Under the pieces are notes generated by a model, which saw nothing but the letters and a program-made list of their open reading frames with translations, made no database searches and was not told where the DNA came from. Shown here in pieces: positions 37,235-61,277 of a DNA stretch of 64,000 bases (positions are counted from its first letter, which is position 1; each line of letters begins with the position of its first letter). The stretch spans positions 1,644,001 to 1,708,000 of the forward strand of contig CATOTC010000001.1 in NCBI GenBank assembly GCA_951812975.1, given 5' to 3'. Position numbers and translations under genes: made by a program. Source of the stretch: an uncultured Acidimicrobiales bacterium. Lineage in GTDB: Bacteria > Actinomycetota > Acidimicrobiia > Acidimicrobiales > Aldehydirespiratoraceae.

Positions 37235-37253
37235 ACGGCCGGCGGGTAGACCG

Positions 37254-39263: not shown

Positions 39264-39267
39264 AACC

Positions 39268-42054
39268 GTGCCTTTGTTCGACATCTCCGGGTTCGACATA
39301 TCCGGCCCGCTGCTGCTGCTGGGCTCGATCTTCGGCATCGGTTACGCCCTGCTGGGCATCGGCTTGGTGCTGGCCTACCGATCCAGCGGCTTCATCAACT
39401 TCGCGCACGGCTCGATCGGCCTGGTTGCCGCCTCGATGATGTCGGTCGTGGTCAACGACTACGGCGTGCCCTACTGGCTCGGTTTCGTCGGAGCGCTGAT
39501 CGTGGCGGCTCTGCTGGCTGCGGGCGTGGAATCATTCGTGGTTCGCAAGCTGTCGGCGGCCCCCAAGGTCCTGTCGATGGTCGCCACCCTGGGTGCTGCC
39601 CAAGCGCTGCTGCTGCTGGCTCTTTCGTTCTCCAAGGGCGGCCTGGGGGGCGGCAGCTTCCCGCAGCCTCCGTTCTTCCCGGAGTTCGACCTCACCGTCT
39701 ACGTCTCGCCCTCCTCGACAGCACTGCTCTGCCTGTCGCCGCTGGTGGTGGCCGGGCTCTATGTGTTCTTGCAGCGCAGCCGGTACGGCCTGGCGATCCG
39801 GGGCGCCGCGGCCAATCCCGACTCGGCGACGCTGGCAGGGGCCGACCCGCGGCACATGGCGATGCTGTCGTGGGCCCTCGCGGGAGCCATCGCCGCGTTC
39901 GCGGCGATGCTGATCATCGGCAACCAGTCGACTGTGACCGCCGATGCGTTGGGTCCCGACTTCATCGTGCGCGGCCTGGCGGTGGCCGCGTTGGCGCGCT
40001 TCGCCAACCTGCCAGCGGCATTGGCCTCCGGGCTGGGAATCGGGATCGTCGAGCAGATCCTGGCCTCCAACCCCGAAGCCACCGGCTGGTTCGAAGTGGC
40101 ATTGTTCGTACTGATCCTGCTCGGAGTGGCGCTTCAGGTGCGTTCGGGTCGTGAACAGCCCGAACGCTGGTCGAGCCTGGCGCCGAACCGCCGGCTGCCC
40201 GATTCGTACCGCGACGTTTGGCTGATCCGGAACCTGGCCTGGGTGACCGGGGCTGTCGGCGTGGTCGTTGCGCTCGTGGTTCCGCTGCTGATGAGCAATC
40301 GTTCGGCGTTCGTGTTGTCGACCATTGTCGCCTTCGCCACCATCGGCATCTCGGTCAGCTTCCTGACTGGTCTGGCCGGTCAGCTCTCGCTGGGGCAGGT
40401 CGCCTTCGCAGCGATCGGTGCTGTCGTTGGAGTTCGGGTTGCCACCGAGACCGGCAGCCTGATCCTGGGGCTGCTGTGCGGCGGGATCACCGCGGCGTTG
40501 GTGTCTGCGGCGGTGGGGTTGCCCGCTCTGAGGGTGCAGGGTCTGCTTCTGGCGATCGCCACGCTGGCCTTCGCCCTGGCGACGTTCAGTTGGCTGCTGC
40601 GGCAGGACTGGGCCTTCGGCGCGGGGCTGTCGTCGCGGCCGGTCAGCGTGGTGGGCATCGATCTCGGCACCTCGCGCAGGTTCTATTTCGCGGCTCTGCT
40701 GACGTTCGTGATGGTGCTTGCCATTGCCCATGTGCTGCGTCGTTCGTCTTTCGGCCGGTCGCTCATCGCGGTCCGCGACAACGCCCCTGCGGCTCGGGTG
40801 CTCCAGATCGCTCCGCGTCGCCTGCTGTTGGCCGCCTACGGATTCTCGGGATTCGTCGCCGGGGTCGGCGGGGTGGTCCTGGCGATGAGCAACACGTTCG
40901 TCTCGCGCAGCATCTTCACCCCGAGCGACAGCATCAACGTTGTGTCGTTGGCTGTCATCGGCGGCCTCTCGGAGCTGACCGGGCCTCTCCTCGGGGCTGC
41001 CTACCTGATTGGTATCCGGGAGTTCTTCGACCTTGAGCTGTCGGCGCTGGCCGGGCTCAACGCGGCGTGGTTGATCCTGATCCTCGAACAGCCGCGCGGC
41101 CTGCACGGTCTGCTGAGCACGACCCGCGGCAACCTCATCGACCAGATCGCCCGGTTGCACGGTATCGACCCCGTTGCCGCCCGGTCAGAACAAAGCGACG
41201 TTGAAGCCGGCTCGACGGTGGTGACAGTCGCCCCCACTGAGCACCCCAGACCCGCCGACGATGTGATGCTGGAAGTGCGCGGCATCAGCAAGCGGTTCGG
41301 TGACCTGGTTGCTGTAGACGATGTGTCGTTGCAGGTCCGCGCCGGCGAGACGCTGGGGTTGATAGGACCCAACGGCGCGGGCAAGACAACCCTGTTCGAG
41401 CTGGTCAGCGGGTATCTGCGTGCCGATGCCGGCACAGTGGTCTTCGACGGTGCAGACATCACCCGCCTGCTACCGGAGGCTCGCAGCCGAGCGGGTCTGG
41501 TGCGCTCGTTCCAGAACGCCTCTTTGTTTCCCACGATGACCGCTCGAGACATCATCTTCCTGGCCAACAAACGAGCCGCGGGACACAGTCTTGTGGTCGG
41601 CGGATCGGCAGCCGAACGCCGAATCGAGGATGAAACCTCCGAGACGCTGGCGATGTTCGGTCTCAGTGGGTTGGCTGACCAGCCCGTGAGCCTGTTGTCG
41701 ACGGGCACCCGCCGCCTGGTCGAGTTGGCGGCCAACGTCGCCCTTCGGCCCAGGCTGCTGCTGATGGACGAACCCTCGGCCGGCATCGCCCAAGCCGAGA
41801 CGGAAGCACTGGGGGCAGTGATCACACAGATCCGCGACGCCTACCAGATGACCCTGGTGGTGATCGAGCACGACATGCCGCTGCTGAGCTCTGTCTGTGA
41901 CCGGTTGGTCGCCATGGAGACTGGTTCCGTCATCGCCGAGGGCACCCCGAGCGAGGTCCAAGCCGACGCCGCCGTGGTGCGCAGCTACCTCGGAGGCGAC
42001 CTGACGGCCATAGCCCGCAGCGGCTCCGCGGCCGGCAGCGAAGGTGAGCGCTAG
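39268..42054 (+). CDS. Fusion: LivH-LivM permeases plus LivG-type ABC ATPase
   Basis: 928 residues, 4 bp after the previous stop. Residues ~8-300 are LivH-like (YALLGIGLVLAYRSSGFINFAHG; AIRGAAANPDSATLAGADPRHM). Residues ~320-620 are LivM-like (TGLAGQLSLGQVAFAAIGA; GRSLIAVRDNAPAARVLQI; VSLAVIGGLSELTGPLLGA). Residues ~665-925 are LivG-like: Walker A GLIGPNGAGKTTLFELVSG, Walker B LLLMDEPSAGI, and H-loop VVIEHDMPLL. The ABC signature reads LLSTGTRRLVELA instead of LSxGQ, a notable deviation. Together with the preceding gene and the lipoprotein this completes one importer in three polypeptides. Confidence 0.9.
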   Translation: MPLFDISGFDISGPLLLLGSIFGIGYALLGIGLVLAYRSSGFINFAHGSIGLVAASMMSVVVNDYGVPYWLGFVGALIVAALLAAGVESFVVRKLSAAPKVLSMVATLGAAQALLLLALSFSKGGLGGGSFPQPPFFPEFDLTVYVSPSSTALLCLSPLVVAGLYVFLQRSRYGLAIRGAAANPDSATLAGADPRHMAMLSWALAGAIAAFAAMLIIGNQSTVTADALGPDFIVRGLAVAALARFANLPAALASGLGIGIVEQILASNPEATGWFEVALFVLILLGVALQVRSGREQPERWSSLAPNRRLPDSYRDVWLIRNLAWVTGAVGVVVALVVPLLMSNRSAFVLSTIVAFATIGISVSFLTGLAGQLSLGQVAFAAIGAVVGVRVATETGSLILGLLCGGITAALVSAAVGLPALRVQGLLLAIATLAFALATFSWLLRQDWAFGAGLSSRPVSVVGIDLGTSRRFYFAALLTFVMVLAIAHVLRRSSFGRSLIAVRDNAPAARVLQIAPRRLLLAAYGFSGFVAGVGGVVLAMSNTFVSRSIFTPSDSINVVSLAVIGGLSELTGPLLGAAYLIGIREFFDLELSALAGLNAAWLILILEQPRGLHGLLSTTRGNLIDQIARLHGIDPVAARSEQSDVEAGSTVVTVAPTEHPRPADDVMLEVRGISKRFGDLVAVDDVSLQVRAGETLGLIGPNGAGKTTLFELVSGYLRADAGTVVFDGADITRLLPEARSRAGLVRSFQNASLFPTMTARDIIFLANKRAAGHSLVVGGSAAERRIEDETSETLAMFGLSGLADQPVSLLSTGTRRLVELAANVALRPRLLLMDEPSAGIAQAETEALGAVITQIRDAYQMTLVVIEHDMPLLSSVCDRLVAMETGSVIAEGTPSEVQADAAVVRSYLGGDLTAIARSGSAAGSEGER

Positions 42055-42683: not shown

Positions 42684-43490
42684 TCAGGCGTCCTTGACGT
42701 CGACGAACAGGTCGCGTTTGCGGAACGCCGCGGTCATGAACCGGGCGAAAGCCTTGCGACGGGTGAGCCACACCACGCGGGCGCCGGACTTGTCGGCGGC
42801 GAGGATGTGGTCGGCCAGCCAGGGGGTGACGGTGTGGACCTTGTCGCCGAGAATGTTGAAGATCTTCTTGGACTTCTCCCACTGTTCTGAGGTGAGGTCG
42901 TAGTCGCCGGTGAGCAGGTCGGTCACGACGATCCCCGGCGAGACAGTGCAGATCTGCACAGCAGTGTCGGCGGTGTCTTTGCGCAGGGCCTTCTGCAGGT
43001 AGCGCACCGCACGCTTGGTCGCGCCGTAGGCCGCCATGCCGGGTTGTGTGGCGCCGTCGGACCCGAACCCCTCGGTGTTCCAGACCTGCCCGTGGTCCTG
43101 GCGCACCATGTTGGAGACCGCGGTCTTGCTGGCCAGCAGCGTGCCCGTGAGGTTGGTGTCGACCAGCGCGGCAAGTTCATCGTCGCTCTGTTCCCACAGA
43201 GGTTCACGCCCGATGCTGACCCCGGCGTTGTTGATCCATATGTCGACCCCGCCGAAAGCCTCTGCGGCGTGGTCCCACAGTTCTTGGAGCTGTCCGGGGT
43301 CGGTGATGTCGCAGGCCCTGCCACAGACCTTGGACTCCCCGTAGTACTCGCCGAGTTCAGCCACCACCGCCGCCACGCTTCCGGCTGAGCGTCCACTGAC
43401 GGCCACCTGGCATTGGCGCTTCAGGAACTCGCGGGCCAATCCGTTGCCGATCCCCCTGGTGCTCCCCGTGATCACGATGCGCTTGCCCAT
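42684..43490 (-). CDS. Short-chain dehydrogenase resembling chlorophyll b reductase (NYC1/NOL type)
   Basis: 268 residues, ATG at 43490. Rossmann motif VITGSTRGIGNGLAREFL, IWINNAGVSIG, and catalytic YGATK. The stretch TNLTGTLLASKTAVSNMV then WNTEGFGSDGATQPGMAAYG closely recalls plant NYC1/NOL chlorophyll b reductases, which have TNL.G...CT.....M and FN.DG.GS.G..TP...YG. That plant enzyme reduces the C7 formyl of chlorophyll b. General SDR function is certain; the chlorophyll b reductase likeness is my reading and needs a tree. It sits between arsC and the hydrolase inside the inverted-repeat cassette. Confidence 0.75.
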   Translation of the reverse strand: MGKRIVITGSTRGIGNGLAREFLKRQCQVAVSGRSAGSVAAVVAELGEYYGESKVCGRACDITDPGQLQELWDHAAEAFGGVDIWINNAGVSIGREPLWEQSDDELAALVDTNLTGTLLASKTAVSNMVRQDHGQVWNTEGFGSDGATQPGMAAYGATKRAVRYLQKALRKDTADTAVQICTVSPGIVVTDLLTGDYDLTSEQWEKSKKIFNILGDKVHTVTPWLADHILAADKSGARVVWLTRRKAFARFMTAAFRKRDLFVDVKDA

Positions 43491-43529: not shown

Positions 43530-44492
43530 TCAGCGCCGTCTCCAGTGGTTCACCAGACGGTGCTCGACGAGGTGCTCCAGAGTGGTGGTCGCCGTCCGCC
43601 CCAGGCTTGTGGCGACGAAAGCGGCGATGAGGTCGCCGAGCAGTGCCCGGACTGCGGGATCGGCATTGACAGGATCAACCTCGAGGAAGGTACGGCCGCT
43701 GGTGGTGTCAAGCGGCCAACAGATTGCGAAATGGCCCGCGTCGGTCAACTCGACCAGCCATGAGTCTCCGTGGTCGCGTGCGATGCCCTCGTCGAAGGTT
43801 CGCCTGATGGGGTCGTGGACCGCGTCGTGCGTGGTTGAGCGGTAGCGGTCGCTGCTTGCTGCGATGACCCCGTCGGCAGTCCCTGCCAGCAGCATCACCG
43901 GCACTTCGGCGGGTGCTGCCACCACAGCACTCTCGCCGTGTCCCAGGGTGGCAGCGGTCATGGTGTGCGCGCCGTAGGTGAACACCGCTTTCAGGCCCGG
44001 TACCCAGGCCGGGTCGCTGTTGTGCAGCGCCACGGTGCCACCGGCTGAGTGGCCTCCGAGGACCACACTGCCGAGGTCCAACAGCCCGGTTACGGGGCTG
44101 TCGTCGTGCCCGGCGCCGTTGAGACGGTTCAGCAGCGGTTCGAGAACCGTGGACGAAGGCCGGGTGCCGATCGTGTCGGGGAGCAGCGCGGTCATGTCGA
44201 TGCCGGGGGTGATGCCCCGGCCCGCAGGCCCGAGCGATCCGACAGCGGTGTAGGTCACCACGCAGATTCCGTCGGCCACGAGTCGGTAGGCGAGCCAGCG
44301 GTATCCGTCCGGGGTCACGTTGATCCCCGGCATCATCACCACAACCGGCCAGGGATCGGGCGTTTGGATCGGCGGGACGCGCCCCGTCAACCGAGCTTCT
44401 GTGAACCGTTGATCGTCGCCGGGGTAGTACAACGTGCCCACCGCTGCGTCTTCGTCGGCCTCAAACGCGAAGTGCCACCCGCGAACGATCAT
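43530..44492 (-). CDS. Alpha/beta hydrolase, chlorophyllase / dienelactone-hydrolase-like
   Basis: 320 residues, ATG at 44492. The oxyanion strand WPVVVMMPGINVTPDGYRWLA is followed by a nucleophile elbow VVLGGHSAGGTVAL, acid Asp in LLAGTADGVI, and His in LTDAGHFAI. The arrangement and the GHSxGG elbow are shared with chlorophyllases and PET-hydrolase-like lipases. No signal peptide, so it acts in the cytoplasm. Directly upstream of the SDR gene (39 bp) and probably co-transcribed. De-esterification of phytol or a porphyrin ester is a reasonable but unproven role. Confidence 0.75.
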   Translation of the reverse strand: MIVRGWHFAFEADEDAAVGTLYYPGDDQRFTEARLTGRVPPIQTPDPWPVVVMMPGINVTPDGYRWLAYRLVADGICVVTYTAVGSLGPAGRGITPGIDMTALLPDTIGTRPSSTVLEPLLNRLNGAGHDDSPVTGLLDLGSVVLGGHSAGGTVALHNSDPAWVPGLKAVFTYGAHTMTAATLGHGESAVVAAPAEVPVMLLAGTADGVIAASSDRYRSTTHDAVHDPIRRTFDEGIARDHGDSWLVELTDAGHFAICWPLDTTSGRTFLEVDPVNADPAVRALLGDLIAAFVATSLGRTATTTLEHLVEHRLVNHWRRR

Positions 44493-44744: not shown

Positions 44745-45200
44745 ATGAGCGAACAGAAAAGCTACGGCCCCGCTTCAGACAAGCCCTACCAGTGTTTCAT
44801 GGGGCGCTGGGAGGGGCTGTGCAAGAGCTTCACCCCCGAAGGCGAGTTCCTCGAATCCAGCGCGGTGCACATGGACGTCTACTGGCTCGACGACCACACC
44901 TGGCACCTGCACGAACACTTCGAGAACCTCTACGGAGTAGGGGAGACCATCTTCGACACGCCCATCGGAGTCGAAGGCAGACGGTGCTTCGCCGACAGCG
45001 AACAGATCAGCCTCGAAGGCGCCGAACTCACGCCCTACAACTACGTTTTCACCATCGACAGCAGAGTCAGCAACACGATCGTCTACAACAACCACTACTT
45101 CCTGGATCCCGACACCCGCCGCATCATCACCCACAAAGTGCGTGACGGGAAGACCATCCTGTTCCAGATCCAGGACTTCGCCCGGATCCAACGGCCATGA
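44745..45200 (+). CDS. Lipocalin-like beta-barrel protein 1
   Basis: 151 residues from ATG 44745 (MSEQKSYG); the track start at 44718 is nine codons earlier without a better ribosome site. It opens with FMGRWEGLCKSFTPEGEF, the GxW strand that begins lipocalin-type barrels, and is strand-rich throughout (HTWHLHEHFENLYG, VSNTIVYNNHYFLDP). It resembles the DUF3598/CpcS-type lipocalins that bind tetrapyrroles in cyanobacteria and plants, but I cannot confirm the family. Starts a four-gene operon with 4-bp overlaps, under operator 5. Confidence 0.6.
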   Translation: MSEQKSYGPASDKPYQCFMGRWEGLCKSFTPEGEFLESSAVHMDVYWLDDHTWHLHEHFENLYGVGETIFDTPIGVEGRRCFADSEQISLEGAELTPYNYVFTIDSRVSNTIVYNNHYFLDPDTRRIITHKVRDGKTILFQIQDFARIQRP

Positions 45201-46015
45201 TCGTTCAACGAGCCCCCGGCGGGGTTGCTGACGCACCGCACTTCGTGATCGCAATGCATCAGCACACCTCCTTCGCAGGATCGCTCGCCGCGAACTTCGG
45301 CAACGACGACTTCGCCGGGCTGGAACCTGCTGAGCCGATGCAGTTCATCGTCGACCACCACGACCAGGGATGGGCCGACCTGGATGCGGCCGCCCCTCAG
45401 GACCCGGCGACGGGACTGCCATACAACCTCACAGCCACTCCGTTGCCGCAGATCGTCGCCACCTCGGCGGGTTCGCCGGCATTCAACGATGCCCACCATC
45501 CGTTCAGCGGCATCATCTCGTCGATGCACACCTACGGCCTGTATCGGGGACGCTACGGGCTGAGCGACAAGATCTTCCTCGACAGCATCGGCGAAGAGCT
45601 GCGCCCTGAAGTCGATGCCATGCTGGCTGCAGAAGAGGACCGTCAGAGCCGTCTCAAGGAACAGCTGGCGGTGAGCGACCCCGACCATGCAAGCGACGAG
45701 TACCTGTTCCACGCCTACAAGCAGCTCCAGTTCTTCGACACGCTCTCGCTCTACATGCACATGTCCCCCGAGGGCGAGAGAGGCGAATCTGAGTTCCACA
45801 ACGTGCCCCGGGCCGTCGGCGACGATGTGACCGTCTCAGTCGTGGAGCTGCCCGGCGCGGTCTATGCACTGGACCCGTATCCCTTCGCTCCCGATCAACT
45901 CGAATTGGCTACAGAGGGCCGATACCTCGCCCCGCAGCCGGCAGGCACCGACCTCGCCGCGATGCTGGCAACGACGCCGATCGAGGCGCAGACGGTGCAT
46001 CTGGTCCGGGCGTGA
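45197..46015 (+). CDS. DUF3891-like metal-binding protein
   Basis: 272 residues, ATGA overlap with the previous gene. His/Asp-rich motifs in the order IAMHQHTSFAGSLAANFG, IVDHHDQGWADLD and NDAHHPFSGIISSMHTYGLY match the DUF3891 pattern (QHa..a..a, eHD.GW..w, H). The residues look like a metal centre in an HD-like helical fold. No reaction is known for the family. Its tight coupling between lipocalin-like genes suggests a role in the ring-breakdown block. Confidence 0.7.
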   Translation: MIVQRAPGGVADAPHFVIAMHQHTSFAGSLAANFGNDDFAGLEPAEPMQFIVDHHDQGWADLDAAAPQDPATGLPYNLTATPLPQIVATSAGSPAFNDAHHPFSGIISSMHTYGLYRGRYGLSDKIFLDSIGEELRPEVDAMLAAEEDRQSRLKEQLAVSDPDHASDEYLFHAYKQLQFFDTLSLYMHMSPEGERGESEFHNVPRAVGDDVTVSVVELPGAVYALDPYPFAPDQLELATEGRYLAPQPAGTDLAAMLATTPIEAQTVHLVRA

Positions 46016-46914
46016 GCAGTGGGTCGTTCTCCCGGGGTGTCGGTGAATGGATCGGCGCTGCTGAGGTTTACGACGCAGAGGGCCGCTTCGCTGGATTGGG
46101 CCGCGACACCCGGTCAGTGCAGGCAGACGACCAGGCCGGGACGGTAACCGTAGAGGTCACCTTCGACGGGCCGTTCTCGCTGTCAGGCGAGTACACGATT
46201 GTTGACCACGGTTCGTATCGGACCTATGAGGGCCCTCTCAACATCGGCTACGCCGAGGCTCTGGGCGACGGCCTGGTAGCGGCTCACAACTACTGGCCGG
46301 ACCTCGGTCTGTCACAGCGGTTCTTTCTGATGGTGATGCCCGACGGGTCACGCCAGTTGTCTCTGGCGTTGCTGAGCCGGGGCGAACAGCTTCGCTGGAC
46401 AGTCGTCGGGGAATATCAGCGCCGACTCGACGAGTCACGCCCGGAACCGCCCCCGCCCGAACCGATGGATCCATCGCAACTGCGAGACGACCCCACAGCG
46501 GGTCGGGGAGAGCTCCTGTTGCTGCGCTCGGGGTGCTGGTCGGGTCGTCTGCAGCGCCTCGATGACGACTGCAAGCCTTCGAATGCGGCCGACTACACCG
46601 AATCGGTTGTCGGCCAGGACGGTTCTTGGGAAGTTGAACTGTCGGGTGCCGACTACTCGTCGGGTCTGTCATTCACCCTGTTGAGCGACGGTTGGACGGC
46701 TTGGACTCCGACCGGCAGCCTGACGGGAAGCGGAATCCTCAGCGGCGGCCGGGGCTTCAGCGGCCAGTTCCACCATCAGGGATCTGGGTTGCGCATGTGG
46801 CGCCGCGAAGCGGCATCGCGAGACGGCACCACCAAAGCGGTACTGCACATCTGGTACCGCGGTGAGGAGCGGCTCGGAGCGGCATACGGCGTCCTGGCCT
46901 TCGATCCGGCATGA
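46012..46914 (+). CDS. Tandem lipocalin-like beta-barrel protein 2
   Basis: 300 residues, GTGA overlap. Two barrel-like halves joined by a Pro/Glu linker (RPEPPPPEPMDPSQL, ~142-156). The first starts GVGEWIGAAEVYDAEGRFAG and has the block YRTYEGPLNIGYAEALGDG; the second starts RSGCWSGRLQRLDDD. The Y-x-GP-x3-G block recurs in the neighbouring proteins, so they form one paralogous family. Likely a soluble binding protein for a hydrophobic or tetrapyrrole ligand; the family has no function I know. Confidence 0.6.
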   Translation: MSSGSFSRGVGEWIGAAEVYDAEGRFAGLGRDTRSVQADDQAGTVTVEVTFDGPFSLSGEYTIVDHGSYRTYEGPLNIGYAEALGDGLVAAHNYWPDLGLSQRFFLMVMPDGSRQLSLALLSRGEQLRWTVVGEYQRRLDESRPEPPPPEPMDPSQLRDDPTAGRGELLLLRSGCWSGRLQRLDDDCKPSNAADYTESVVGQDGSWEVELSGADYSSGLSFTLLSDGWTAWTPTGSLTGSGILSGGRGFSGQFHHQGSGLRMWRREAASRDGTTKAVLHIWYRGEERLGAAYGVLAFDPA

Positions 46915-47645
46915 ACAGTGATCCCGTTAGGACTGGTTCAATGAGTACTGACCCCGTTGGTACTGGCCCAATGGGCACTGGTTACACCAGCGGCGGCGAC
47001 ACGTTCAGTGGGGCCTGGTTGGTGACCGAATACGTCCACGACCCCGACGGCACGTTCCGGGGAACCGTCGCCCAGCGCCGCCGTGTCGAACAGGTCGACG
47101 AGGCGCGCCTGCGGGTGACCCAGCAGTGCGAACCGTCGGCCGCTCTCCACGGCCACGCCATGGCCGCGTTCGCCGGTGAATGGGTGTTCGATCTCGAAGT
47201 GGTCGGCGACCAGCGCCATTATTTGGGCCCCGATGTGGTGGGCTCAGCCACGCAATGGCAACCCGGTGCGATGACCGGGCAGGGCATGTGGCCCCGATTC
47301 GGATACGAGTTCGAGTCCTACAGCGTGCTGGTAGCCCCCGACCGTCAACTCACCGGCGGGTTCTTCTCGCTCGCCGGACGGTCCGTGGCAGACATCGTGG
47401 GAGTGGCCGTCCCCGAAACCGCCGGTATCGAGCCTCGCTTGGACCTGACGGCCCCGCCGCCCGTCGCCGGCGACGAATGGCAACTGCACCGAGCGGTCGG
47501 CCCGCTGCTGGTAGCGACCGCCCGTCCCACGCCGTCACAGCGCCGCCGCCTCTGGACGATGCACGATCCGGCCGGAGCCGCCACAGTCGCCCTTACTGAG
47601 ACTGTCGACGGGGGAGCACGCGCGGTCGCGGTGGCAGTCAGCTGA
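46911..47645 (+). CDS. Lipocalin-like beta-barrel protein 3
   Basis: 244 residues, ATGA overlap. The first ~27 residues are an imperfect 10-residue tandem repeat (SDPVRTGSM, STDPVGTGPM) encoded by repeated DNA, so the true start may be a later Met at 46941 or 46971. The barrel then begins FSGAWLVTEYVHDPDGTFRG and includes RHYLGPDVVGSATQWQPGAM, the family's Y-x-GP block. Last gene of the operon; converges with the next minus-strand gene 13 bp later. Confidence 0.55.
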   Translation: MNSDPVRTGSMSTDPVGTGPMGTGYTSGGDTFSGAWLVTEYVHDPDGTFRGTVAQRRRVEQVDEARLRVTQQCEPSAALHGHAMAAFAGEWVFDLEVVGDQRHYLGPDVVGSATQWQPGAMTGQGMWPRFGYEFESYSVLVAPDRQLTGGFFSLAGRSVADIVGVAVPETAGIEPRLDLTAPPPVAGDEWQLHRAVGPLLVATARPTPSQRRRLWTMHDPAGAATVALTETVDGGARAVAVAVS

Positions 47646-47658
47646 GCGGCGACATCCC

Positions 47659-48597
47659 CTAGTCCGATGACCAGATGAGAGGGCCGAACACGATGTCGGT
47701 CATGCGGTCACCGGAGTAGAGCTTCCAGGCCACAGCCATCGTGTAGCTGCGGTCGAGGATGAACTCCCGCCCCTTGACCTTGAACGCCTCGCTGGAGTGG
47801 TGCTGCGATGTGTACAGCGCCCGACCGTAGGCGATGGCGTTGCCCCAGAGATCGGGGCCGTCATAGGTGTAGCGGTTGCCGCCCGAGCGGGTCCGGGTGT
47901 AGCTCAACGACCGGTCGAAGGCCCCCGACATGTCCAACGTGCAGTTGGCGCGCACCAAGTCGATGGGGTCGTTGCGCAAGCGCACGTCGACTGAACCCCG
48001 GCGCTGTTGGTCGGCCCCGAACACCTCGCATTGGCCGGTCCATTCGCCACCGACCCGGTCCGGCACGGTGTGCGGCCATGAGGCCAGCTCGCGTTCGGCC
48101 TCGATGTGGCCGTCGATCCACTCCTTGGTATCGGCGTTGGTGTCGTAGTCGTGGGCGTTGAGGTACACCCCGTTGAACACCGAGAAGAGGGTCGGCCCCT
48201 CATACAGCAGCGACGAATAAACCTGGGTCACGCCGTCCGGCAGGATCTGGTTCATGGTGTTGAGATCGGCCCGCCATCCCGGAGAGTAGTAGTGCGAGTC
48301 CACCAGCGACCCGTAGGGATGGCCTGCCCCGTAGAAGTCGGGGCCCCGATAGATGCGGTCGTTGCCCTGGTCGTCTACTCCGAACTCGAAGTCGCGGATC
48401 TCGAAGCGGTTGCGCAGCGGCCCGGTGTTCATGAAGTTGCACTGCATCCAGTAGGTGACCTCGCCGTCGGCGAACACGCTGGCCCGGCTGACCTTGTTGA
48501 ACCCGGTGTGGCTTCCGTCGGCATCGAAGACCGACGGCAGGCCGTACCACTCACCGGTGATGCGCTGTTGCCATTCAGAGGCTTCGGTTTCGCTCAT
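47659..48597 (-). CDS. Tandem lipocalin-like beta-barrel protein 4
   Basis: 312 residues, ATG at 48597. Two barrel-like domains: the first from ITGEWYGLPSVFDADGSHTG with DRIYRGPDFYGAGHPYGSLV, the second from VGGEWTGQCEVFGADQQRRG with RYTYDGPDLWGNAIAYGRAL. The shared Y-x-GP-x3-G-x4-YG signature links it to proteins 1-3. It is the last gene of the RCCR-Rieske-RCCR operon on the minus strand, which ties this family to macrocycle breakdown. Confidence 0.62.
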   Translation of the reverse strand: MSETEASEWQQRITGEWYGLPSVFDADGSHTGFNKVSRASVFADGEVTYWMQCNFMNTGPLRNRFEIRDFEFGVDDQGNDRIYRGPDFYGAGHPYGSLVDSHYYSPGWRADLNTMNQILPDGVTQVYSSLLYEGPTLFSVFNGVYLNAHDYDTNADTKEWIDGHIEAERELASWPHTVPDRVGGEWTGQCEVFGADQQRRGSVDVRLRNDPIDLVRANCTLDMSGAFDRSLSYTRTRSGGNRYTYDGPDLWGNAIAYGRALYTSQHHSSEAFKVKGREFILDRSYTMAVAWKLYSGDRMTDIVFGPLIWSSD

Positions 48598-48706: not shown

Positions 48707-49426
48707 TCAGGTGCGGGCGGCGGTTTTGAGGCTGGTCTGGATCTCGGTGCTCATCTCTGCACCGAGAAGTTGGTCCACGCGGGCCCACACGGGATCGACC
48801 TCCGGACTGAAGACGGCTTCACGGTTGCGATGGTCACGGCGGTCCAGGTCCTTGGGGGTCGCGCCGCCGAGGGCATCGTCGGGCACACCCTCGCCCACCA
48901 AATCGAGCCAGTGGTCGCGGTAGTGGGCCACGGCACCGAACACGCCCGCGAAGCCCTCCTCATCAGCCCGATGGGCCAGCATCCAAGCCGACATCAGCTG
49001 CCATTGTCGGGGTGACAGGTGCGCCGCGGTGAGCCCGTCCAGTTGCAGGACCGCGTCGTGGGTCTCGGTGAGCGGGCCGTAGCAATGGTCGATGTAGGCC
49101 AGGTTCGCGCCCGGGTCGAGGCGGGGGATCAAATCCAGGTGGAACGCATAGTGGGGACCGGCCAACACTGAGTCCACCGTGAAATGGGGGACCGGGCTGT
49201 GGGGCGGCGTGAAAGCGAAACACATGTGGCTGTCGAGACCGAACGCCTCCACCGTCATGCCGACATAGACCAACTCGGCCACCCCGTCGCGCGACAGCAC
49301 GCGATGGGAACCGACCGACGAACCGTCCAGTGCCGAAACCAGAGGTGTGCTCACAGTTTCGGCCAGGTCGAGGCGATTCTCGATCGCCTCGACGGTCCCG
49401 AGGCACAGATCAGCCGACAGGCTCAT
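48707..49426 (-). CDS. Ferredoxin-dependent bilin reductase / RCC-reductase-like protein 2
   Basis: 239 residues from ATG 49426 (MSLSADLCLG); the track start at 49675 runs into the Rieske gene. Secondary pattern and motifs follow the FDBR/RCCR superfamily: VPHFTVDSVLAGPHYAFHLDL is where plant RCC reductase has APNFVVELIQ and LVLILDL, then LIPRLDPG, then LSPRQWQLMSAW and VFGAVAHYRDHWLDLVGEG. The Asp in FTVDS falls where RCCR has its catalytic Glu and several bilin reductases have Asp. These enzymes use ferredoxin electrons to reduce linear tetrapyrroles. 25 bp downstream of the Rieske gene, same operon. Confidence 0.68.
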   Translation of the reverse strand: MSLSADLCLGTVEAIENRLDLAETVSTPLVSALDGSSVGSHRVLSRDGVAELVYVGMTVEAFGLDSHMCFAFTPPHSPVPHFTVDSVLAGPHYAFHLDLIPRLDPGANLAYIDHCYGPLTETHDAVLQLDGLTAAHLSPRQWQLMSAWMLAHRADEEGFAGVFGAVAHYRDHWLDLVGEGVPDDALGGATPKDLDRRDHRNREAVFSPEVDPVWARVDQLLGAEMSTEIQTSLKTAART

Positions 49427-49451: not shown

Positions 49452-50618
49452 TCATTGGGGGGACCCGGTGCCGGTGTGCGGCGCCGCGGCCTCAGCGACG
49501 GTGGGGAAGACCCAGGCATTGGCCAACTCGGGGTCACCGGCTCGTGCCGGCGAAGGAATGACTGCAGCGGCCCGCATAGCCGTTTCGTCCGAGAGCACTT
49601 CAAGTCCCCAGCCTCTGTTGATCTGCTCGGAGCGCCAGCGACGGTAGGCCAACTGGATCGAATCGGACTTGACATGAAGCTCGGCCGACAGGTCGAAGGG
49701 CAACAGCTCGGGACGCTGCCCCTCCACGGTCGGCTGGTCCTCCAAGAAGATCTTGATCGTGCGCTGCATGGAGTTCTTGTCGGCCCAACCGCCTGTGAAG
49801 AACGTGCGCAGCATGGCGAACTTCGAGACTGTGACGTGCTCGTCGCGGGGGACCGCCGCGGTGAAGATGCGGATCTCGCCCATCGGCAGGCGCACGATCA
49901 GCAGCGACACGTTGGGGGGATAGAAGCCGGTGGTGGTGCTGACCGGGGGGCGGTCCTTCTTGGAGATGAACTTCCACAGACCGGATGGACGGGGAGGCTC
50001 AAGGTCGACTGTGGCAGTCACCGAGGTCAGAAATCCGTCGTTGCGCTCCTCTTGGAGTTCGAACTCCTCGATCTCAGGCTGGTCGGCGTTGCCGAACGAA
50101 CCGGAGTGCACGAACGGTGTGTGGGCGATGTCCACGGCGTTCTCCAATACCCGGTCGTAGTTGGCGTTCCAGGTGAACTCCCCGAATATGGCCCGGTAAC
50201 CCGCCGCTTTGGCCTCGGTGTGCTCTTCGAGCCCGTCGAGCACAGGCACCGGCGGACGCTGCTCGGCAGGAAGGTCACCCAGGAATACCCACACGAAGCC
50301 GTAGCGCTCCACACAGGGGTAGGTGTCGATCCGGGCCTTGCGGGGGATGGGAAGGTCCTGACGGTTCGCCGGGATCTCCACGCACGCACCGTCGGAGCCG
50401 TAGCGCCATCCGTGGTAGGGGCATTGCACACAGTTGCCGACCACTCTGCCCCCAGCCAGTGAACCGCCGCGGTGCACGCAGAGGTCGGACTGGGCATTGA
50501 CGGTTCCATCGGGACTGCGCCACAGCACCAGGTCGTGGCCGTGCACCCGGGCGAGAACGGGTTCAGCAGCGACCTCCGCACCGAATTCGACTGCGTACCA
50601 GTGGTTCTTTATGAACAT
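49452..50618 (-). CDS. Rieske [2Fe-2S] oxygenase, pheophorbide a oxygenase-like
   Basis: 388 residues, ATG at 50618. The N-terminal Rieske domain has LCVHRGGSLAGG and CVQCPYHGWRYG (CxH...CxxH). The mononuclear iron site is ENAVDIAHTPFVHSGSFG (D-x2-H-x4-H). This arrangement and the region VLENAVDIAH recall pheophorbide a oxygenase (ENLMDPAHVPYAH), which opens the chlorin ring with O2, but VanA/choline-monooxygenase relatives share it. No transmembrane tail, unlike plant PAO. No dedicated reductase or ferredoxin gene is in the window. Sandwiched between two RCCR-like genes, the same enzyme order as plant chlorophyll breakdown. Confidence 0.85.
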   Translation of the reverse strand: MFIKNHWYAVEFGAEVAAEPVLARVHGHDLVLWRSPDGTVNAQSDLCVHRGGSLAGGRVVGNCVQCPYHGWRYGSDGACVEIPANRQDLPIPRKARIDTYPCVERYGFVWVFLGDLPAEQRPPVPVLDGLEEHTEAKAAGYRAIFGEFTWNANYDRVLENAVDIAHTPFVHSGSFGNADQPEIEEFELQEERNDGFLTSVTATVDLEPPRPSGLWKFISKKDRPPVSTTTGFYPPNVSLLIVRLPMGEIRIFTAAVPRDEHVTVSKFAMLRTFFTGGWADKNSMQRTIKIFLEDQPTVEGQRPELLPFDLSAELHVKSDSIQLAYRRWRSEQINRGWGLEVLSDETAMRAAAVIPSPARAGDPELANAWVFPTVAEAAAPHTGTGSPQ

Positions 50619-50630
50619 GTGATTCTTCCT

Positions 50631-51443
50631 TCAGGCAGGTCTCGGCAGGTGTCGGTCGCCGCCCCACAGGGCCCGCACCAGACGGTCGGTCATCTCCTGG
50701 CCGAAGAACCGTACCGCCATCACGTTGGCCGGGTCTCTTTCGGCGATGGTGCGCCGTCGGGCCAGGTCGTCCGCGGCAAGTTGTGCTCGCCGCCGCTGCG
50801 GCACGGGTTCGGCCTCGTCGACCCATTGCAGCCACTGGTCGACACGGCGGTGGGCGAGTTCGCCCACCTGGTCCAGCCGTGCTTCGTCGTGGGTGCGGTT
50901 CGGGGTGGTGAAGCAGATGGCCACGTCGCTGAGCGCCGCTCGGATGTACAGGGCCCTGGAGGTGAACGGTGCCAGCCCCTCGTCTGCTCGCAGCGCCAGG
51001 AACTCCTCGTTGAGCGGTTCGTAGTACTTGTCCAGCGCTTCGGTGTCGAGCATGAGGTCGGAGCGGGGGTTGTAGTCGATGTAGAACCACAGGTCGGGCA
51101 GGGTTCCCCAGGCGATACCGAGATGTGGCACATCGATATGGGGGCCGAGCCATGCGGTTACGTGCATGTTGGTGAAACCGAGGGGCGGGTTGCCGATCCA
51201 GGAGTGGATCAGCCAGTCTATTTCGGGCCCGCTGTAGGCGGCGAGCCGGCCCGAAGGGTGCTCCATCTCGCCCCGATACGACTCCAGGTCGGCGGTGCTG
51301 GGGTCTCGGGTCAGTTCGAACCGGGCTTCGATCTTGGCCATGACCTCGCAGGTGATCGACCACAGCCGGTCGAAGGTTGCCGTCGCGTCTGTCGGGACTC
51401 GCTCGTCGAAGATGTCTTGGACACCCTTCAACGTCTCGCGCAT
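50631..51443 (-). CDS. Red chlorophyll catabolite reductase-like protein 1
   Basis: 270 residues from ATG 51443 (MRETLKG), chosen because GGAGAA lies 5 bp upstream; the track start at 51491 would place operator 2 inside the gene. The C-terminal VRFFGQEMTDRLVRALWG closely matches plant RCC reductase (PRMFGEEVSSRVVHAI). The middle region LWFYIDYNPRSDLMLDTEAL, DKYYEPLN and FTSRALYIRAALSD parallels the plant LILDLPHRKDLVL...YY...SLFVRSAFSP order. The position of the plant active-site Glu is Ala here, while an Asp (ERDPAN) falls near the plant active-site Asp. First gene of the minus-strand operon RCCR1-Rieske-RCCR2-lipocalin 4. Confidence 0.75.
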   Translation of the reverse strand: MRETLKGVQDIFDERVPTDATATFDRLWSITCEVMAKIEARFELTRDPSTADLESYRGEMEHPSGRLAAYSGPEIDWLIHSWIGNPPLGFTNMHVTAWLGPHIDVPHLGIAWGTLPDLWFYIDYNPRSDLMLDTEALDKYYEPLNEEFLALRADEGLAPFTSRALYIRAALSDVAICFTTPNRTHDEARLDQVGELAHRRVDQWLQWVDEAEPVPQRRRAQLAADDLARRRTIAERDPANVMAVRFFGQEMTDRLVRALWGGDRHLPRPA

Positions 51444-51471
51444 TGGTTCTCCGATATCGTCAGAGGAAGGT

Positions 51472-51499
51472 TGTTCCGTCAAGCGGAACATCGTTTCGT
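51472..51499 (+). promoter_or_regulatory. Regulon operator 2, divergent promoter
   Basis: TGTTCC-N7-GGAACA-TC-GTTTCGT between the RCCR1 operon (minus, start 29 bp away) and the CitE-like gene (plus, start 78 bp away). Positioned to control both directions. Confidence 0.7.
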
Positions 51500-51577: not shown

Positions 51578-52393
51578 ATGAGCCGCACCACTCTTTACGT
51601 CCCGGGCGACCGGGCTGACCGCTTCGCCAAGGCGCTTGCCTCGGGAGCTGACGCCATCATCTGTGACCTCGAAGACGCGGTTGCCGAAACAGCCAAGGCA
51701 ACGGCCCGTGAAGCAGTCTCGAAGTGGCTGGGGGCCAACTCCGGCGCAGCGGCATGGGTGCGGGTCAACAACCGTCCCGACCTGCTCGAGGACGACGCGG
51801 CCATGGTTCGTTCGCTGGTGGCCGACGGGGTGGATTTCGCGGGGGTGGTGGTTCCCAAGGCCGACAGGACTGTCTGCGCGGTCGACTTCGCGGGCAGCCC
51901 CGTAATGGCCCTCATCGAGTCGGCGGTCGGTGTGAGAGACATCTATGAGATAGCGGCAAATCCCGCGGTAGTGCGTCTGGCTCTGGGAGAGGCCGACCTG
52001 GCCGCCGACATGAGCATGGAACCGTCCGCGGACGCCCTTGAGATGTGGCCGATCCGCACCCGAGTGGTGGTCGCATCGGTCGGCTCCGGACTCAATGCCC
52101 CCTGCGGACCCGTACCCACCGACCTCAACGACGACGAAGCGCTGGTCGCCTCCAGCGAATCGCTGCGCCGCCACGGATTCGGTGGTCGTTCGGTGATCCA
52201 CCCCAAGCAGGTGGAGGCGGTCAACGCAGCATTCACTCCATCAGCCGATTCCATCGCCCACGCGGAGAAGGTCGTGGCAGCTTATGAAGCAGCGGTCGAA
52301 GAAGGTCGCGCAGCACTGGTTCTCGACGGCGAGTTCATCGACACCGCAGTCGTGCGGCAAGCCCGAGCAGTTCTGGCTAGGACGCCGCGCTGA
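51578..52393 (+). CDS. HpcH/HpaI-CitE family acyl-CoA lyase or aldolase
   Basis: 271 residues. Family motifs in order: TTLYVPGDRADRFAKAL (~3-19), DAIICDLEDAVAETAK (Mg-binding region), VRVNNRP, FAGVVVPKAD, ALIESAVGVRDIYEIA (Glu metal ligand), LALGEADLAADMSM (Asp ligand), and RSVIHPKQVEAVN. This is the citryl/malyl/citramalyl-CoA lyase type that cleaves beta-hydroxyacyl-CoA to acetyl- or propionyl-CoA plus an alpha-keto acid. In the island it would follow the CaiB CoA-transferases. Its 3' end overlaps the convergent nitrilase gene by 17 bp. Confidence 0.88.
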   Translation: MSRTTLYVPGDRADRFAKALASGADAIICDLEDAVAETAKATAREAVSKWLGANSGAAAWVRVNNRPDLLEDDAAMVRSLVADGVDFAGVVVPKADRTVCAVDFAGSPVMALIESAVGVRDIYEIAANPAVVRLALGEADLAADMSMEPSADALEMWPIRTRVVVASVGSGLNAPCGPVPTDLNDDEALVASSESLRRHGFGGRSVIHPKQVEAVNAAFTPSADSIAHAEKVVAAYEAAVEEGRAALVLDGEFIDTAVVRQARAVLARTPR

Positions 52394-54125
52394 ACCTCTC
52401 GCTGAGCACGGCGGAAGCTTGCCAGGGGCGACCTCCTACCAGGTCCGTGTCCTTGGAGACCTCTCGATTCAGTGCTCGACCGGGGTGCAGGGTAGCGATC
52501 AACAACCCGTCCGTTGGTTCGGCCCGAATGGTTGTCGGAGTGTTGATCGTGCCGTCGTAGGCGCTCGATCGCTGAGGGTTCCACAGCGAATCAGCGGGTG
52601 GGTCGAGCAGCACCGCAGCACCCAGCGAACCTGCCGGACCGCATGCCGCGAGGCTCACTCGGTTCTCGGCTGCCCGCTCTACCAGAGCCAGATCGCACTC
52701 CCAGGCGCGTTCAGGCTGCCAACACACCGCAACGATGTGGGCGCCGGCAACAGCTGCCAAACGCACCGCTTCGGGATAGCGGTGATCGTCGGCGACCAGC
52801 ACCGCCAGATCACCGAACGGCGTCCGGTACAGGTCTACGGAATCGCCGAGCCTGGTGACCTGCGGGTAGCGATCACTGCGGTGGATCTGCCGTTGCTCGT
52901 GCACTAGGCCCTGCGCGGACCAGACCCGGCCCCTGTGCTGGGTGTGGCCGTGTTGGTCCTGGTCGCTGTGCTGGGTGTGGCCGTGTTGGTCCTGGTCGCT
53001 GTGCTGGGTGTGGCCGTGTTGGTCCTGGTCGCTGTGCTGGGTGTGGCCTCTGTGTTGGCCCTCACCGTGTTGATCTTCTCCCAGGGCCGTGGTCACCACC
53101 AGGACCCCCTCGGGGATAACGGGCGGTACCGGTGTCAGCTCCGGCAAGATCACCAGCGATGCCCCCGAATCGAAGGCCTCGTCGATGAGTTCTGGATTGG
53201 TTCGGGCCCCAGGCACGCAGGCAACCCGCACCTCGTTGGCCAACCCGGAGACCGGCTGAACCGTATCGGCTTGCGCCAGCGGGGCGTACACCTTCGGGCG
53301 GCGCCCTGAGAGTCGCCCAGGATCAACATCGGAAAGGTCGACGTCGGCGATGACCACGGCCTCACCGGTCAGGGGCGCGATGGCCAACACCGTGCCGTCA
53401 GGACCGACGATCTGGCTCTCCCCGGCGCCGTTGAGAGTCTCGGGCGGCACGCCGAGCGCCTCGCTGAAGGCGCCCACTCGGTCGGGGGGCAACAGCGGGC
53501 CGACCTTGTTGGCAGCCACCACAAACACTCCGTTCTCGGCGGCTCGCACCGGAATGTGCAGTGCGGCCTCGTCCCGGGCGAACGAGTTGAGGTTGTTCAT
53601 CAACAGTCGGGCGCCCCGCACCGCCAGTGTGCGCGGTATCTCGAAGGTCACGCCGTCCATGCAGGAATACAGGCCGACGGGGCCGAAGCGGGTGTCGGTC
53701 ACGGGGTTCGCCCCTACACCGGCGCTCAGGAAGGCCCGTTCGTTGCCCATGAGCATCTGCTTGTCGGCAGTGGCTGCCAGGTTGCCGTCGGGGTCGAACA
53801 ACACTCCGGTCACAGTCACCCGATCATCGGGCTGGGGCATCGTCACGGCCAATGCGGCGTAGACGCCGTGCTCAGCGACCCGCCGAGCAAAAGCCTGCAT
53901 CCAGGGACCGTCTGCTGTTACAGCAACCGAGCGGCAGTGGGCGACGTCGTCGTAGACCGAGATGTGGTTGCAGAACTCGGGCAGCACCACGACCTCAGCG
54001 CCCTCAGAAGCGGCCGCATCGAGCATCCGCAGGCAGGTGCCCAGGTTCTCGTCGAGGTCACAGCCCGTGGCGAACTGTACTGCCGCCACGCTCAAGCGGT
54101 CCGTCACCACAGGCGGTTCAGGCAT
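52377..54125 (-). CDS. Double nitrilase-superfamily protein with His-rich insert
   Basis: 582 residues, ATG at 54125. The N-terminal carbon-nitrogen hydrolase domain (~8-280) has a full triad: Glu in VVVLPEFCNH, Lys in ATADKQMLMGNE, Cys in GLYSCMDGVTFEIPR. A second domain (~295-575) repeats the fold (SLVILPELTP; GDLAVLVADDHRYPEAV; GAHIVAVCWQ), but the Cys position is Asp and the Lys position is not conserved, so it is a degenerate copy. Inside it sits an 11-residue repeat, HSDQDQHGHTQ, three and a half times. The active half likely hydrolyses an amide in the island's lower pathway; the inert half may be structural or regulatory. Confidence 0.85.
   Translation of the reverse strand: MPEPPVVTDRLSVAAVQFATGCDLDENLGTCLRMLDAAASEGAEVVVLPEFCNHISVYDDVAHCRSVAVTADGPWMQAFARRVAEHGVYAALAVTMPQPDDRVTVTGVLFDPDGNLAATADKQMLMGNERAFLSAGVGANPVTDTRFGPVGLYSCMDGVTFEIPRTLAVRGARLLMNNLNSFARDEAALHIPVRAAENGVFVVAANKVGPLLPPDRVGAFSEALGVPPETLNGAGESQIVGPDGTVLAIAPLTGEAVVIADVDLSDVDPGRLSGRRPKVYAPLAQADTVQPVSGLANEVRVACVPGARTNPELIDEAFDSGASLVILPELTPVPPVIPEGVLVVTTALGEDQHGEGQHRGHTQHSDQDQHGHTQHSDQDQHGHTQHSDQDQHGHTQHRGRVWSAQGLVHEQRQIHRSDRYPQVTRLGDSVDLYRTPFGDLAVLVADDHRYPEAVRLAAVAGAHIVAVCWQPERAWECDLALVERAAENRVSLAACGPAGSLGAAVLLDPPADSLWNPQRSSAYDGTINTPTTIRAEPTDGLLIATLHPGRALNREVSKDTDLVGGRPWQASAVLSERFSAAS
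52935..53048. repeat. 33-bp tandem repeat (3.5 copies) coding a His-rich insert
   Basis: Three exact copies (52935-52967, 52968-53000, 53001-53033) and a partial fourth. In frame in the nitrilase-like gene, coding HSDQDQHGHTQ per unit. Exact identity suggests a recent and length-variable expansion; the His/Asp content could bind metal. Confidence 0.85.
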
Positions 54126-55038: not shown

Positions 55039-55113
55039 GATGTTCGCTGGTGAGGCCCATGCGCGCTGGGAACGGTTGCCAACATACATATCTTTGCGGA
55101 ACACTAGGGCCGA

Positions 55114-55141
55114 TGTTCCCCTGGGAGAAACAACGTTCCGC
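55114..55141 (+). promoter_or_regulatory. Regulon operator 4 (CoA-transferase promoter)
   Basis: TGTTCC-N7-GAAACA-AC-GTTCCGC, ending at the base before the ATG of the CoA-transferase. A further GCGGAACA half-site lies at 55096-55103. The promoter region here is only 140 bp and holds two full sites. Confidence 0.65.
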
Positions 55142-57153: not shown

Positions 57154-57182
57154 GGTCCGTCGCATGAGGTCCGTCGCATGAG
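57145..57182 (+). repeat. 14-bp tandem repeat at gene junction
   Basis: GTCGCATGAGGTCC occurs twice and then partially (GTCGCATGAG), giving three ATGA units between the cyclase stop and the MmgE/PrpD start. Repeat slippage here would change the spacing or coupling of the two genes. Confidence 0.6.
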
Positions 57183-58599: not shown

Positions 58600-58739
58600 C
58601 CGAACTGGCAATCACCGGTCCCACCGTGCTCCGTCAGGACACAGGCGAGGCCGGCCTCGTCGATACTGGCTCGACCGCCGAACTTTCGGCACGGTTCGCC
58701 CGTCTGAAAAGAACTCACCTGCCAGAGGTACGCTCATGA
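58596..58739 (+). pseudogene. Truncated duplicate of the hydantoinase N-terminus
   Basis: A 47-codon ORF starting with an ATGA overlap reads MTELAITGPTVLRQDTGEAG, clearly a copy of the next gene's MTELIITGATVVRPDAGVAD, then diverges. The two starts are 140 bp apart and both couple by ATGA to the preceding frame. A tandem partial duplication; whether it is translated is unknown. Confidence 0.7.
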
Positions 58740-61266: not shown

Positions 61267-61277
61267 ACTGGTAGCCC

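What the first reader, a model, noticed from the sequence alone, without database searches (positions are those of the whole stretch)
44745..48597. Clustered family of lipocalin-like barrel proteins
Four genes (two with tandem domains, so about six barrels) share a GxW first strand and a Y-x-GP-x3-G block. Three are coupled by 4-bp overlaps with a DUF3891 gene; the fourth ends the RCCR operon. Lipocalin-fold proteins that bind tetrapyrroles are known (CpcS/T lyases, nitrobindins), so these may be carriers or isomerases for pathway intermediates. I do not recognise an exact named family.
Basis: partly seen in the sequence, partly recalled or inferred. Interest (0 to 1): 0.75.

Follow-up and report, generated by a model that had tools for sequence, protein, structure and literature searches.

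The report
Barrel proteins in tetrapyrrole-catabolism gene cluster
A marine bacterium carries, inside a conserved gene cluster that looks like a pathway for taking apart chlorophyll-type pigments, a previously unnamed set of small barrel-shaped proteins that probably hold or process the pigment fragments; no such pathway turned up for non-photosynthetic bacteria in the papers I could search.

Summary
The genes are real, but they are not one family. B2, B3 and B4 (five domains) are one family by profile comparison. B1 is not detectably related to them and lacks the Y-x-GP motif, which occurs in four of the six proposed barrels. AlphaFold2 models of B1 and of B4's C-terminal domain are all-beta. 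Foldseek's best solved match for both is DUF3598 (2o62), followed by BFA1; CpeS lyase, nitrobindin and Ycf58 rank lower. So the 'tetrapyrrole-binding type barrel' reading is supported as a fold class, not shown as a function; B4's N-domain model failed.

B4 always follows RCCR, a Rieske oxygenase and X (a second, divergent RCCR/bilin-reductase homologue). B4 and RCCR occur in exactly the same 8 of 395 sampled genomes of the class. B4 is as conserved as RCCR; B1 is the most conserved of ten cluster proteins. No heme oxygenase was found in nine carrier genomes. Neighbours suggest de-esterification, oxidoreduction and alkyl-maleimide breakdown (inferred).

Best reading: cytosolic binding proteins for phototoxic tetrapyrrole intermediates; B4 serves the ring-opening/reduction step, B1-DUF3891-B2-B3 an upstream accessory step. 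An enzymatic role (isomerase, Mg-dechelatase) remains open. I found no published description of such a cluster.

The parts
44745..45200 (+). B1: 151-aa single barrel (start could be GTG 44718). Most conserved protein of the cluster. Not detectably homologous to B2-B4.
45197..46015 (+). DUF3891 (PF13030) protein, 272 aa, with invariant His/Asp clusters (QHT, HxxGW region, HHP, SSMH, FFDT); 4-bp overlaps with B1 and B2
46012..46914 (+). B2: tandem-domain protein, 300 aa, GTG start; N-domain has GEW and RTYEGPLNIG, C-domain has GCW only
46911..47645 (+). B3: single barrel-family domain plus C-terminal extension, 244 aa; RHYLGPDVVG motif
47659..48597 (-). B4: tandem-domain protein, 312 aa; last gene of the RCCR-Rieske-X-B4 run; as conserved as RCCR
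48707..49426 (-). X: 239-aa second RCCR/bilin-reductase-superfamily protein (profile link to RCCR 93%, E=3e-7 over 218 columns). The listed ORF start at 49675 overlaps the Rieske gene and is probably not used.
49452..50618 (-). Rieske non-heme iron oxygenase (PF00355 + VanA_C PF19112); candidate ring-opening oxygenase
50631..51491 (-). RCCR homologue (PF06405 E=6e-17; profile hits plant RCCR 3agb E=2.6e-13)
43530..44492 (-). alpha/beta hydrolase of the PETase/chlorophyllase superfamily with GHSAGG; candidate de-esterifying enzyme (inference)
42684..43490 (-). short-chain dehydrogenase/reductase (PF00106); resembles plant chlorophyll b reductase NYC1/NOL from memory only
35807..42054 (+). LIV-type ABC transporter: binding protein (35807-37234), ABC1 (37254-39263), fused permease/ATPase ABC2 (39268-42054)
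51578..54125 (.). HpcH/CitE-RipC-like C-C lyase (51578-52393, +) and double carbon-nitrogen hydrolase (52377-54125, -), conserved with the core
55040..62474 (+). two CoA-transferases III, putative cyclase, MmgE/PrpD, hydantoinase/allantoinase-like amidohydrolase and unknown 60196-61281; inferred alkyl-maleimide branch

Best explanation
The locus is a chlorophyll- or bilin-type tetrapyrrole catabolic cluster of marine and sponge-associated Acidimicrobiia. The barrel proteins are its soluble ligand-binding proteins: cytosolic calycin-fold (FABP/CpcS/DUF3598-like) barrels that hold hydrophobic, photoreactive tetrapyrrole intermediates. B4 (two barrels) belongs to the core RCCR-Rieske-X-B4 module. 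It would receive the open-chain product of the Rieske oxygenase and present it to the two RCCR-like reductases, or take up the reduced product. B1, B2 and B3, translationally coupled with DUF3891, form an accessory module found with the transporter, esterase and dehydrogenase, and would handle the earlier closed-ring stage. Shown: gene order, homologies, co-occurrence, conservation and predicted fold class. Inferred: the ligand, the direction of transfer, and carrier rather than catalyst.
For: B4 and RCCR occur in exactly the same 8 of 395 genomes of the class. RCCR-Rieske-X-B4 adjacency is kept in all loci where both sides are visible, down to 50-55% B4 identity. B1 occurs in 5 genomes, all among those 8. 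DUF3891 was found only in cluster genomes, 6 of 13 tested. The RCCR profile hits plant RCCR at 2.6e-13. X is a second RCCR-like protein. No heme oxygenase in nine cluster genomes while controls rang in three. AF2 and Foldseek place B1 and B4's C-domain nearest DUF3598 2o62, BFA1, then CpeS, nitrobindin and Ycf58 among others. In three genomes the best whole-genome DUF3598_N hit is B1 or B4, below cut-off. No N-terminal hydrophobic stretch in B1-B4. Six barrel domains for one pathway fits binding/hand-over better than one catalytic step (inference).
Against: No ligand-binding evidence. B4's N-domain, its better conserved half, was not modelled (pLDDT below 50), and no B2 or B3 model was made. 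Many calycins bind no tetrapyrrole, and the Foldseek lists also contain lipid- and siderophore-binding lipocalins. B1 and B4 are as conserved as enzymes, which also suits catalysis. The Rieske protein is nearer SxtT/NdmA-type oxygenases than PaO, so ring opening is not shown.
Confidence: 0.5

Rival explanations
1. One or more barrels are enzymes of the pathway. B1 (with DUF3891) would be an SGR-independent Mg-dechelatase or a pheophorbide-modifying enzyme; B4 a bilin isomerase or hydrolase acting on the ring-opened product.
For: B1 is the most conserved of ten cluster proteins (mean identity 0.825) and B4 equals RCCR (0.778 against 0.777). Many invariant polar residues: B1 H42 D44 H54 H56 E57 H58 H117 H130; B4 N57 R62 R64 D87 H102 N113 Q117. 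No Staygreen (SGR) family hit in the window's genome (control silent). S-type lyases with this fold handle bilins and show that such barrels can promote chemistry (from knowledge).
Against: No homology to any known dechelatase or isomerase. B2 and B3 diverge faster than the enzymes (0.60). The Staygreen search had no positive control. No active-site geometry was available.
Confidence: 0.3
2. The barrels bind a non-tetrapyrrole lipophilic ligand set free by the pathway, for example phytol, fatty acids or CoA-activated intermediates, as FABP-like proteins do.
For: FABP-like and lipocalin folds commonly bind lipids; an esterase and an acyl-CoA dehydrogenase lie nearby.
Against: B4 is kept in the minimal core (RCCR-Rieske-X-B4) even where the esterase, transporter and dehydrogenase are absent from the cluster. 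The conserved face is rich in Arg, Asn, His and Asp, which suits a carboxylated polar ligand better than a plain lipid (inference).
Confidence: 0.12
3. The cluster serves a different substrate class (another pyrrole, indole or polycyclic compound); the RCCR-like pair and barrels are repurposed for it.
For: The Rieske protein is VanA/SxtT/NdmA-like, not PaO (PF08417 absent). The RCCR residue E154 known from plant RCCR falls in an alignment gap here (alignment; role from knowledge). The transporter is LIV-type, usual for small acids.
Against: The RCCR profile still picks plant RCCR first and bilin reductases second, and nothing else in the PDB. The residue aligned with plant D291 is invariant (D253). 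Two RCCR-superfamily proteins in one operon. CpeS, nitrobindin and Ycf58 are among the nearest folds of the barrels.
Confidence: 0.15

Closest known systems
DUF3598 family (PF12204; structure 2o62, Nostoc punctiforme Npun_R4044)
   Same: Double all-beta barrel; top Foldseek hit of both models (E 4.9e-4 and 6.9e-4). Weak DUF3598_N sequence matches to B1 and B4 at the GxW strand.
   Different: Sequence scores stay below the Pfam cut-off (best 13 against 22 bits; 12.5). DUF3598 rang in the cyanobacterial control. Context here is an RCCR operon in heterotrophs. DUF3598 function is itself unknown.
CpcS/CpeS S-type phycobiliprotein lyases (4tq2; CpcS-like Ycf58 3bdr)
   Same: Same barrel class; 4tq2 is Foldseek rank 4 for B1 (E 1.7e-3, TM 0.63/0.55), 3bdr rank 23 for B1 and 35 for B4; members bind bilins (knowledge).
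   Different: No phycobiliprotein target was found among the annotated cluster genes; no sequence match; tandem domains in B2 and B4; coupled to DUF3891.
Nitrobindins (2a13, 3wjf; Rv2717c 2fr2)
   Same: Ten-stranded heme-binding barrels among the better Foldseek hits of both models.
   Different: No sequence match; heme-ligating residue not tested.
BFA1 (5yvf), Arabidopsis chloroplast ATP synthase biogenesis factor
   Same: Two-barrel protein, second-best fold match for both models.
   Different: 7-12% identity; plant assembly factor with no link to pigment breakdown known to me.
Plant PaO/RCCR chlorophyll breakdown pathway
   Same: A Rieske oxygenase gene next to RCCR; an esterase and SDR in the cluster recall chlorophyllase/pheophytinase and NYC1.
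   Different: Bacterial; second RCCR-like protein X; VanA-type Rieske; no SGR hit; barrels and DUF3891 have no plant pathway counterpart; adjoining genes suggest breakdown beyond phyllobilins.
Pre-PcyA bilin clusters with BBAG globins (PMC10151467)
   Same: FDBR/RCCR-superfamily enzyme clustered with a small bilin-binding protein family in heterotrophic bacteria.
   Different: Those have heme oxygenase, V4R, Fe-S and globin proteins; here no heme oxygenase was found, and the associated proteins are beta barrels.

Membership tests
DUF3598 (PF12204) | Sequence match above the Pfam gathering score (22 bits) | tested here: not met
   Best bits reported: 12.5 for B1; 13, 12.2 and 11 in whole-genome searches. 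Best E 0.019 for one B4 orthologue and 0.051 for B1.
DUF3598 (PF12204) | Double-barrel fold of 2o62 | tested here: inconclusive
   Top Foldseek hit for both models, prob 1.00, but TM 0.45-0.63 by query length and B4's N-domain unresolved
CpcS/CpeS lyases | Sequence family match (Pfam/NCBIfam) | tested here: not met
   No hit for any barrel
CpcS/CpeS lyases | Bilin binding and transfer to phycobiliprotein | not testable with these tools
   Needs purified protein
Lipocalin superfamily (calycins) | GxW on the first strand and an all-beta up-and-down barrel | tested here: met
   GxW at the start of all six domains; all-beta models with 10-11 strands for B1 and B4's C-domain. Not modelled for B4N, B2 and B3; motif alone is weak.
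Nitrobindin | Heme-ligating histidine in a 10-stranded barrel | not tested
   Fold similarity only
B2/B3/B4 as one family | Significant profile-profile similarity of the five domains | tested here: met
   the five are linked through B2N and B4C; direct B4N-B4C link weaker (41%)
B1 as member of that family | Profile-profile similarity and the Y-x-GP block | tested here: not met
   prob 5% or less; motif in 0/15 orthologues
RCCR (gene 50631-51491) | PF06405 above cut-off; best structural relative plant RCCR | tested here: met
   62.2 bits against 24.9; 3agb E=2.6e-13
RCCR (gene 50631-51491) | Plant catalytic residues E154 and D291 (from knowledge) | tested here: inconclusive
   D291 position aligned with invariant D253; E154 position falls in a gap
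Pheophorbide a oxygenase | PaO Pfam domain (PF08417) besides Rieske | tested here: not met
   Rieske + VanA_C only; nearest structures SxtT/SxtDIOX, NdmA
Chlorophyllase (gene 43530-44492) | PF07224 above cut-off | tested here: not met
   PETase PF12740 in 11/12 orthologues, Chlorophyllase in 2/12 at E=0.013 or worse
NYC1/NOL chlorophyll b reductase (gene 42684-43490) | Direct similarity to plant NYC1/NOL | not tested
   No plant sequence available; resemblance is from memory
Staygreen Mg-dechelatase | PF12638 gene in the genome | tested here: inconclusive
   No hit in the window's genome, but no control genome rang either

The most novel reading that the evidence does not exclude
Heterotrophic marine Acidimicrobiia possess a complete bacterial pathway for mineralising chlorophyll: uptake, de-esterification, oxidative ring opening, double RCCR-type reduction, and maleimide-to-CoA breakdown. 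In it B1/DUF3891 form a new kind of Mg-dechelatase and B4 a new class of bilin-binding hand-over protein or isomerase.
Probability: 0.2. Interest if true: 0.92.

Novelty: new variant of a known kind. Interest (0 to 1): 0.72.

Why it matters
Chlorophyll is made and degraded on a scale of about 10^12 kg a year (stated in PMC7318184), yet I found no described bacterial enzyme pathway for it. This locus offers a defined gene set with a Rieske oxygenase, two RCCR-type reductases and dedicated barrel proteins, which makes bacterial breakdown of chlorophyll or bilins directly testable. The barrels would also give a first functional handle on the DUF3598-like fold, whose function is unknown.

Tried and rejected
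(1) One family of four barrels: rejected for B1 by profile comparison. (2) Sequence-level PDB relatives of B1 and B4: single-protein and profile searches gave only chance hits. (3) DUF3891 against the PDB, single and profile: nothing; no paper mentions it. (4) Staygreen dechelatase in the genome: no hit, but the control was silent. (5) Heme breakdown via heme oxygenase: not supported. (6) Plasmid spread: no match for B4 or RCCR. (7) First B2 orthologue set contained four B4 sequences picked up by homology (L009, L020, L021, L023); removed before the profile comparison. (9) A PEB:PCB isomerase paper was read for a barrel isomerase; the enzyme is not identified there.
Full report
OBSERVATION. 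The window lies in a 3.0-Mb genome held in six contigs; its nearest named relatives are Acidimicrobiia MAGs from sponges and marine samples. At 44745-48597 there are four ORFs, called here B1 (151 aa), B2 (300 aa), B3 (244 aa) and B4 (312 aa), with a DUF3891 gene between B1 and B2. B1-DUF3891-B2-B3 run on the plus strand with three exact 4-bp ATGA/GTGA overlaps. B4 converges on them from the minus strand, its stop 13 bp from B3's. B4 ends the run RCCR (51491-50631), Rieske oxygenase (50618-49452), X (49426-48707), B4 (48597-47659).

ONE FAMILY OR SEVERAL. Orthologues of every gene were collected from 21 genome loci and further genomes. The tandem proteins were split and profiles compared. B2N, B2C, B3, B4N and B4C are connected: B2N-B4N 97% (E=2e-10), B2N-B3 94% (2e-7), B2C-B4C 91% (1e-6), B2N-B4C 83% (1e-5), with B4N-B4C directly at 41% (3e-4). 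The alignments match GxW to GxW and R-x-Y-x-GP to R-x-Y-x-GP. B1 is not connected (5% or less) and has no Y-x-GP in any orthologue. The Y-x-GP-x3-G string is in B2N, B3, B4N and B4C but not in B2C or B1. In the window's long open frames it occurs six times, four of them in these genes.

FOLD. AlphaFold2 with shallow in-cluster alignments gave a moderate all-beta model for B1 (mean pLDDT 71; the other four models 45-60) and a fair to good all-beta model for B4 residues 183-311 (blocks mostly 70-94, lowest 54), with residues 1-151 unresolved (below 50). Foldseek against the PDB put the DUF3598 protein 2o62 first for both (E 4.9e-4 and 6.9e-4) and BFA1 5yvf second. CpeS lyase 4tq2 is fourth for B1 (E 1.7e-3). 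Nitrobindins, Rv2717c and Ycf58 come lower, mixed with other lipocalins, siderocalins and designed barrels. By sequence DUF3598_N is only a sub-threshold hit. Yet in three of nine carrier genomes searched whole, the best hit to that family is B1 or B4. This places the proteins in the calycin/FABP-like fold class near DUF3598, not in the DUF3598 family. B2, B3 and B4N are assigned by homology only.

CONTEXT. The order SBP-ABC1-ABC2-SDR-ABH-B1-DUF3891-B2-B3-B4-X-Rieske-RCCR-HpcH-CNhydrolase-IclR-CoA transferase-cyclase-PrpD-amidohydrolase is almost unchanged in most of the 21 loci. In more distant genomes (L030, L039) only a core remains at this place: RCCR-Rieske-X-B4, with HpcH, CN-hydrolase, a beta-propeller-repeat protein and CoA transferase in range, B4 being 50-55% identical. 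In an even sample of 395 genomes of the class, B4 and RCCR were found in exactly the same 8. Related clusters are not independent events, so no probability is attached. B1 was found in 5 genomes, all among those 8. DUF3891 was found in 6 of 13 tested genomes, all cluster carriers.

WHAT THE PATHWAY DOES. The RCCR profile finds plant red chlorophyll catabolite reductase first (3agb, E=2.6e-13), a bilin reductase second, and nothing else. X has no significant Pfam hit but aligns with RCCR over 218 columns (93%, E=3e-7); one orthologue touches PF06405 at 0.032. No heme oxygenase was found in nine cluster genomes, while the control genomes rang in three. The Rieske oxygenase is therefore the candidate ring opener, but it lacks the PaO domain and is nearest SxtT/SxtDIOX and NdmA. 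Other neighbours resemble itaconate C-C lyase RipC, hydantoinase/allantoinase, nitrilase-type amidase and mesaconate or succinate CoA transferase, all below the equivalog cut-offs. This order of activities would suit hydrolysis of alkyl-maleimides (known oxidative chlorophyll products, PMC7318184) to half-amides, diacids and CoA esters that are then cleaved. That is inference from family names.

MECHANISM. Shown: B4 is tied to the RCCR/Rieske core by position and co-occurrence, and changes as slowly as RCCR (mean pairwise identity 0.778 and 0.777). B1 is the slowest-changing of ten cluster proteins (0.825). B2 and B3 change faster (0.60). None of B1-B4 has an N-terminal hydrophobic stretch, so they are most likely cytosolic. 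Inferred: B4 holds the open-chain, light-sensitive product between oxygenase and reductases; B1-DUF3891-B2-B3 serve an earlier step together with transporter, esterase and dehydrogenase. A catalytic role for B1 or B4 is the main rival. The high conservation of polar residues (B1 H42, D44, H54, H56, E57, H58, H117, H130; B4 N57, R62, R64, D87, H102, N113, Q117) keeps it alive.

COMPARISON AND NOVELTY. The pre-PcyA clusters of heterotrophic bacteria (PMC10151467) are the closest known arrangement: a bilin reductase-superfamily enzyme clustered with a bilin-binding protein. They use globins and heme oxygenase and lack the Rieske-RCCR pair. That paper places RCCR-like sequences of Candidatus Schekmanbacteria in its outgroup but describes no gene cluster of this kind in the passages read. 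Searches for bacterial chlorophyll catabolism found no matching report; the library excludes most subscription journals. I rate the barrels as a new variant of a known kind (calycin ligand-binding proteins) in a setting that appears undescribed.

LIMITS. Shallow alignments, one half of B4 unmodelled, no ligand data, no plant NYC1 or PaO sequences to compare directly, Staygreen search without a positive control, and co-occurrence from one bacterial class only.

Noticed in passing
window 48707-49426 (-): X, between the Rieske gene and B4, is a second RCCR/FDBR-superfamily protein without a significant Pfam hit; it carries VPHFTVDSV...FHLDLIPR, resembling the substrate strand of bilin reductases.
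   Followed up: partly
window 45197-46015 (+): DUF3891 has invariant His/Asp clusters (HQHT, HxxGW with preceding HD, HHP, SSMH, FFDT) reminiscent of an HD-type metal site; found only in cluster-carrying genomes among the 13 tested.
   Followed up: partly
window 52377-54125 (-): The double carbon-nitrogen hydrolase carries a run of His/Gln/Asp-rich repeats (HGHTQHSDQDQ) between its two halves; several orthologues are about 45-65 residues shorter.
   Followed up: no
window 55040-62474 (+): CoA transferases, PrpD, hydantoinase-like amidohydrolase and cyclase conserved with the cluster; fits an alkyl-maleimide degradation branch.
   Followed up: partly
window 14642-26134 (-): Very long ORF of 3830 aa with same-length (189 aa) opposite-strand ORFs recurring at 17555, 18842, 22640 and 24572, suggesting a large repeat protein.
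   Followed up: no
L021: Record titled Rhodospirillaceae (isolate ARS27) carries the cluster at about 75-80% identity to Acidimicrobiia loci; probably mislabelled or mis-binned.
   Followed up: no
L010 11000-17400: About 6.5 kb is inserted between B4 and B3, splitting the two barrel operons.
   Followed up: no
L028: One locus has the cluster genes broken into frameshifted pieces (Rieske, X, B4, B1, ABH), either assembly errors or decay.
   Followed up: no
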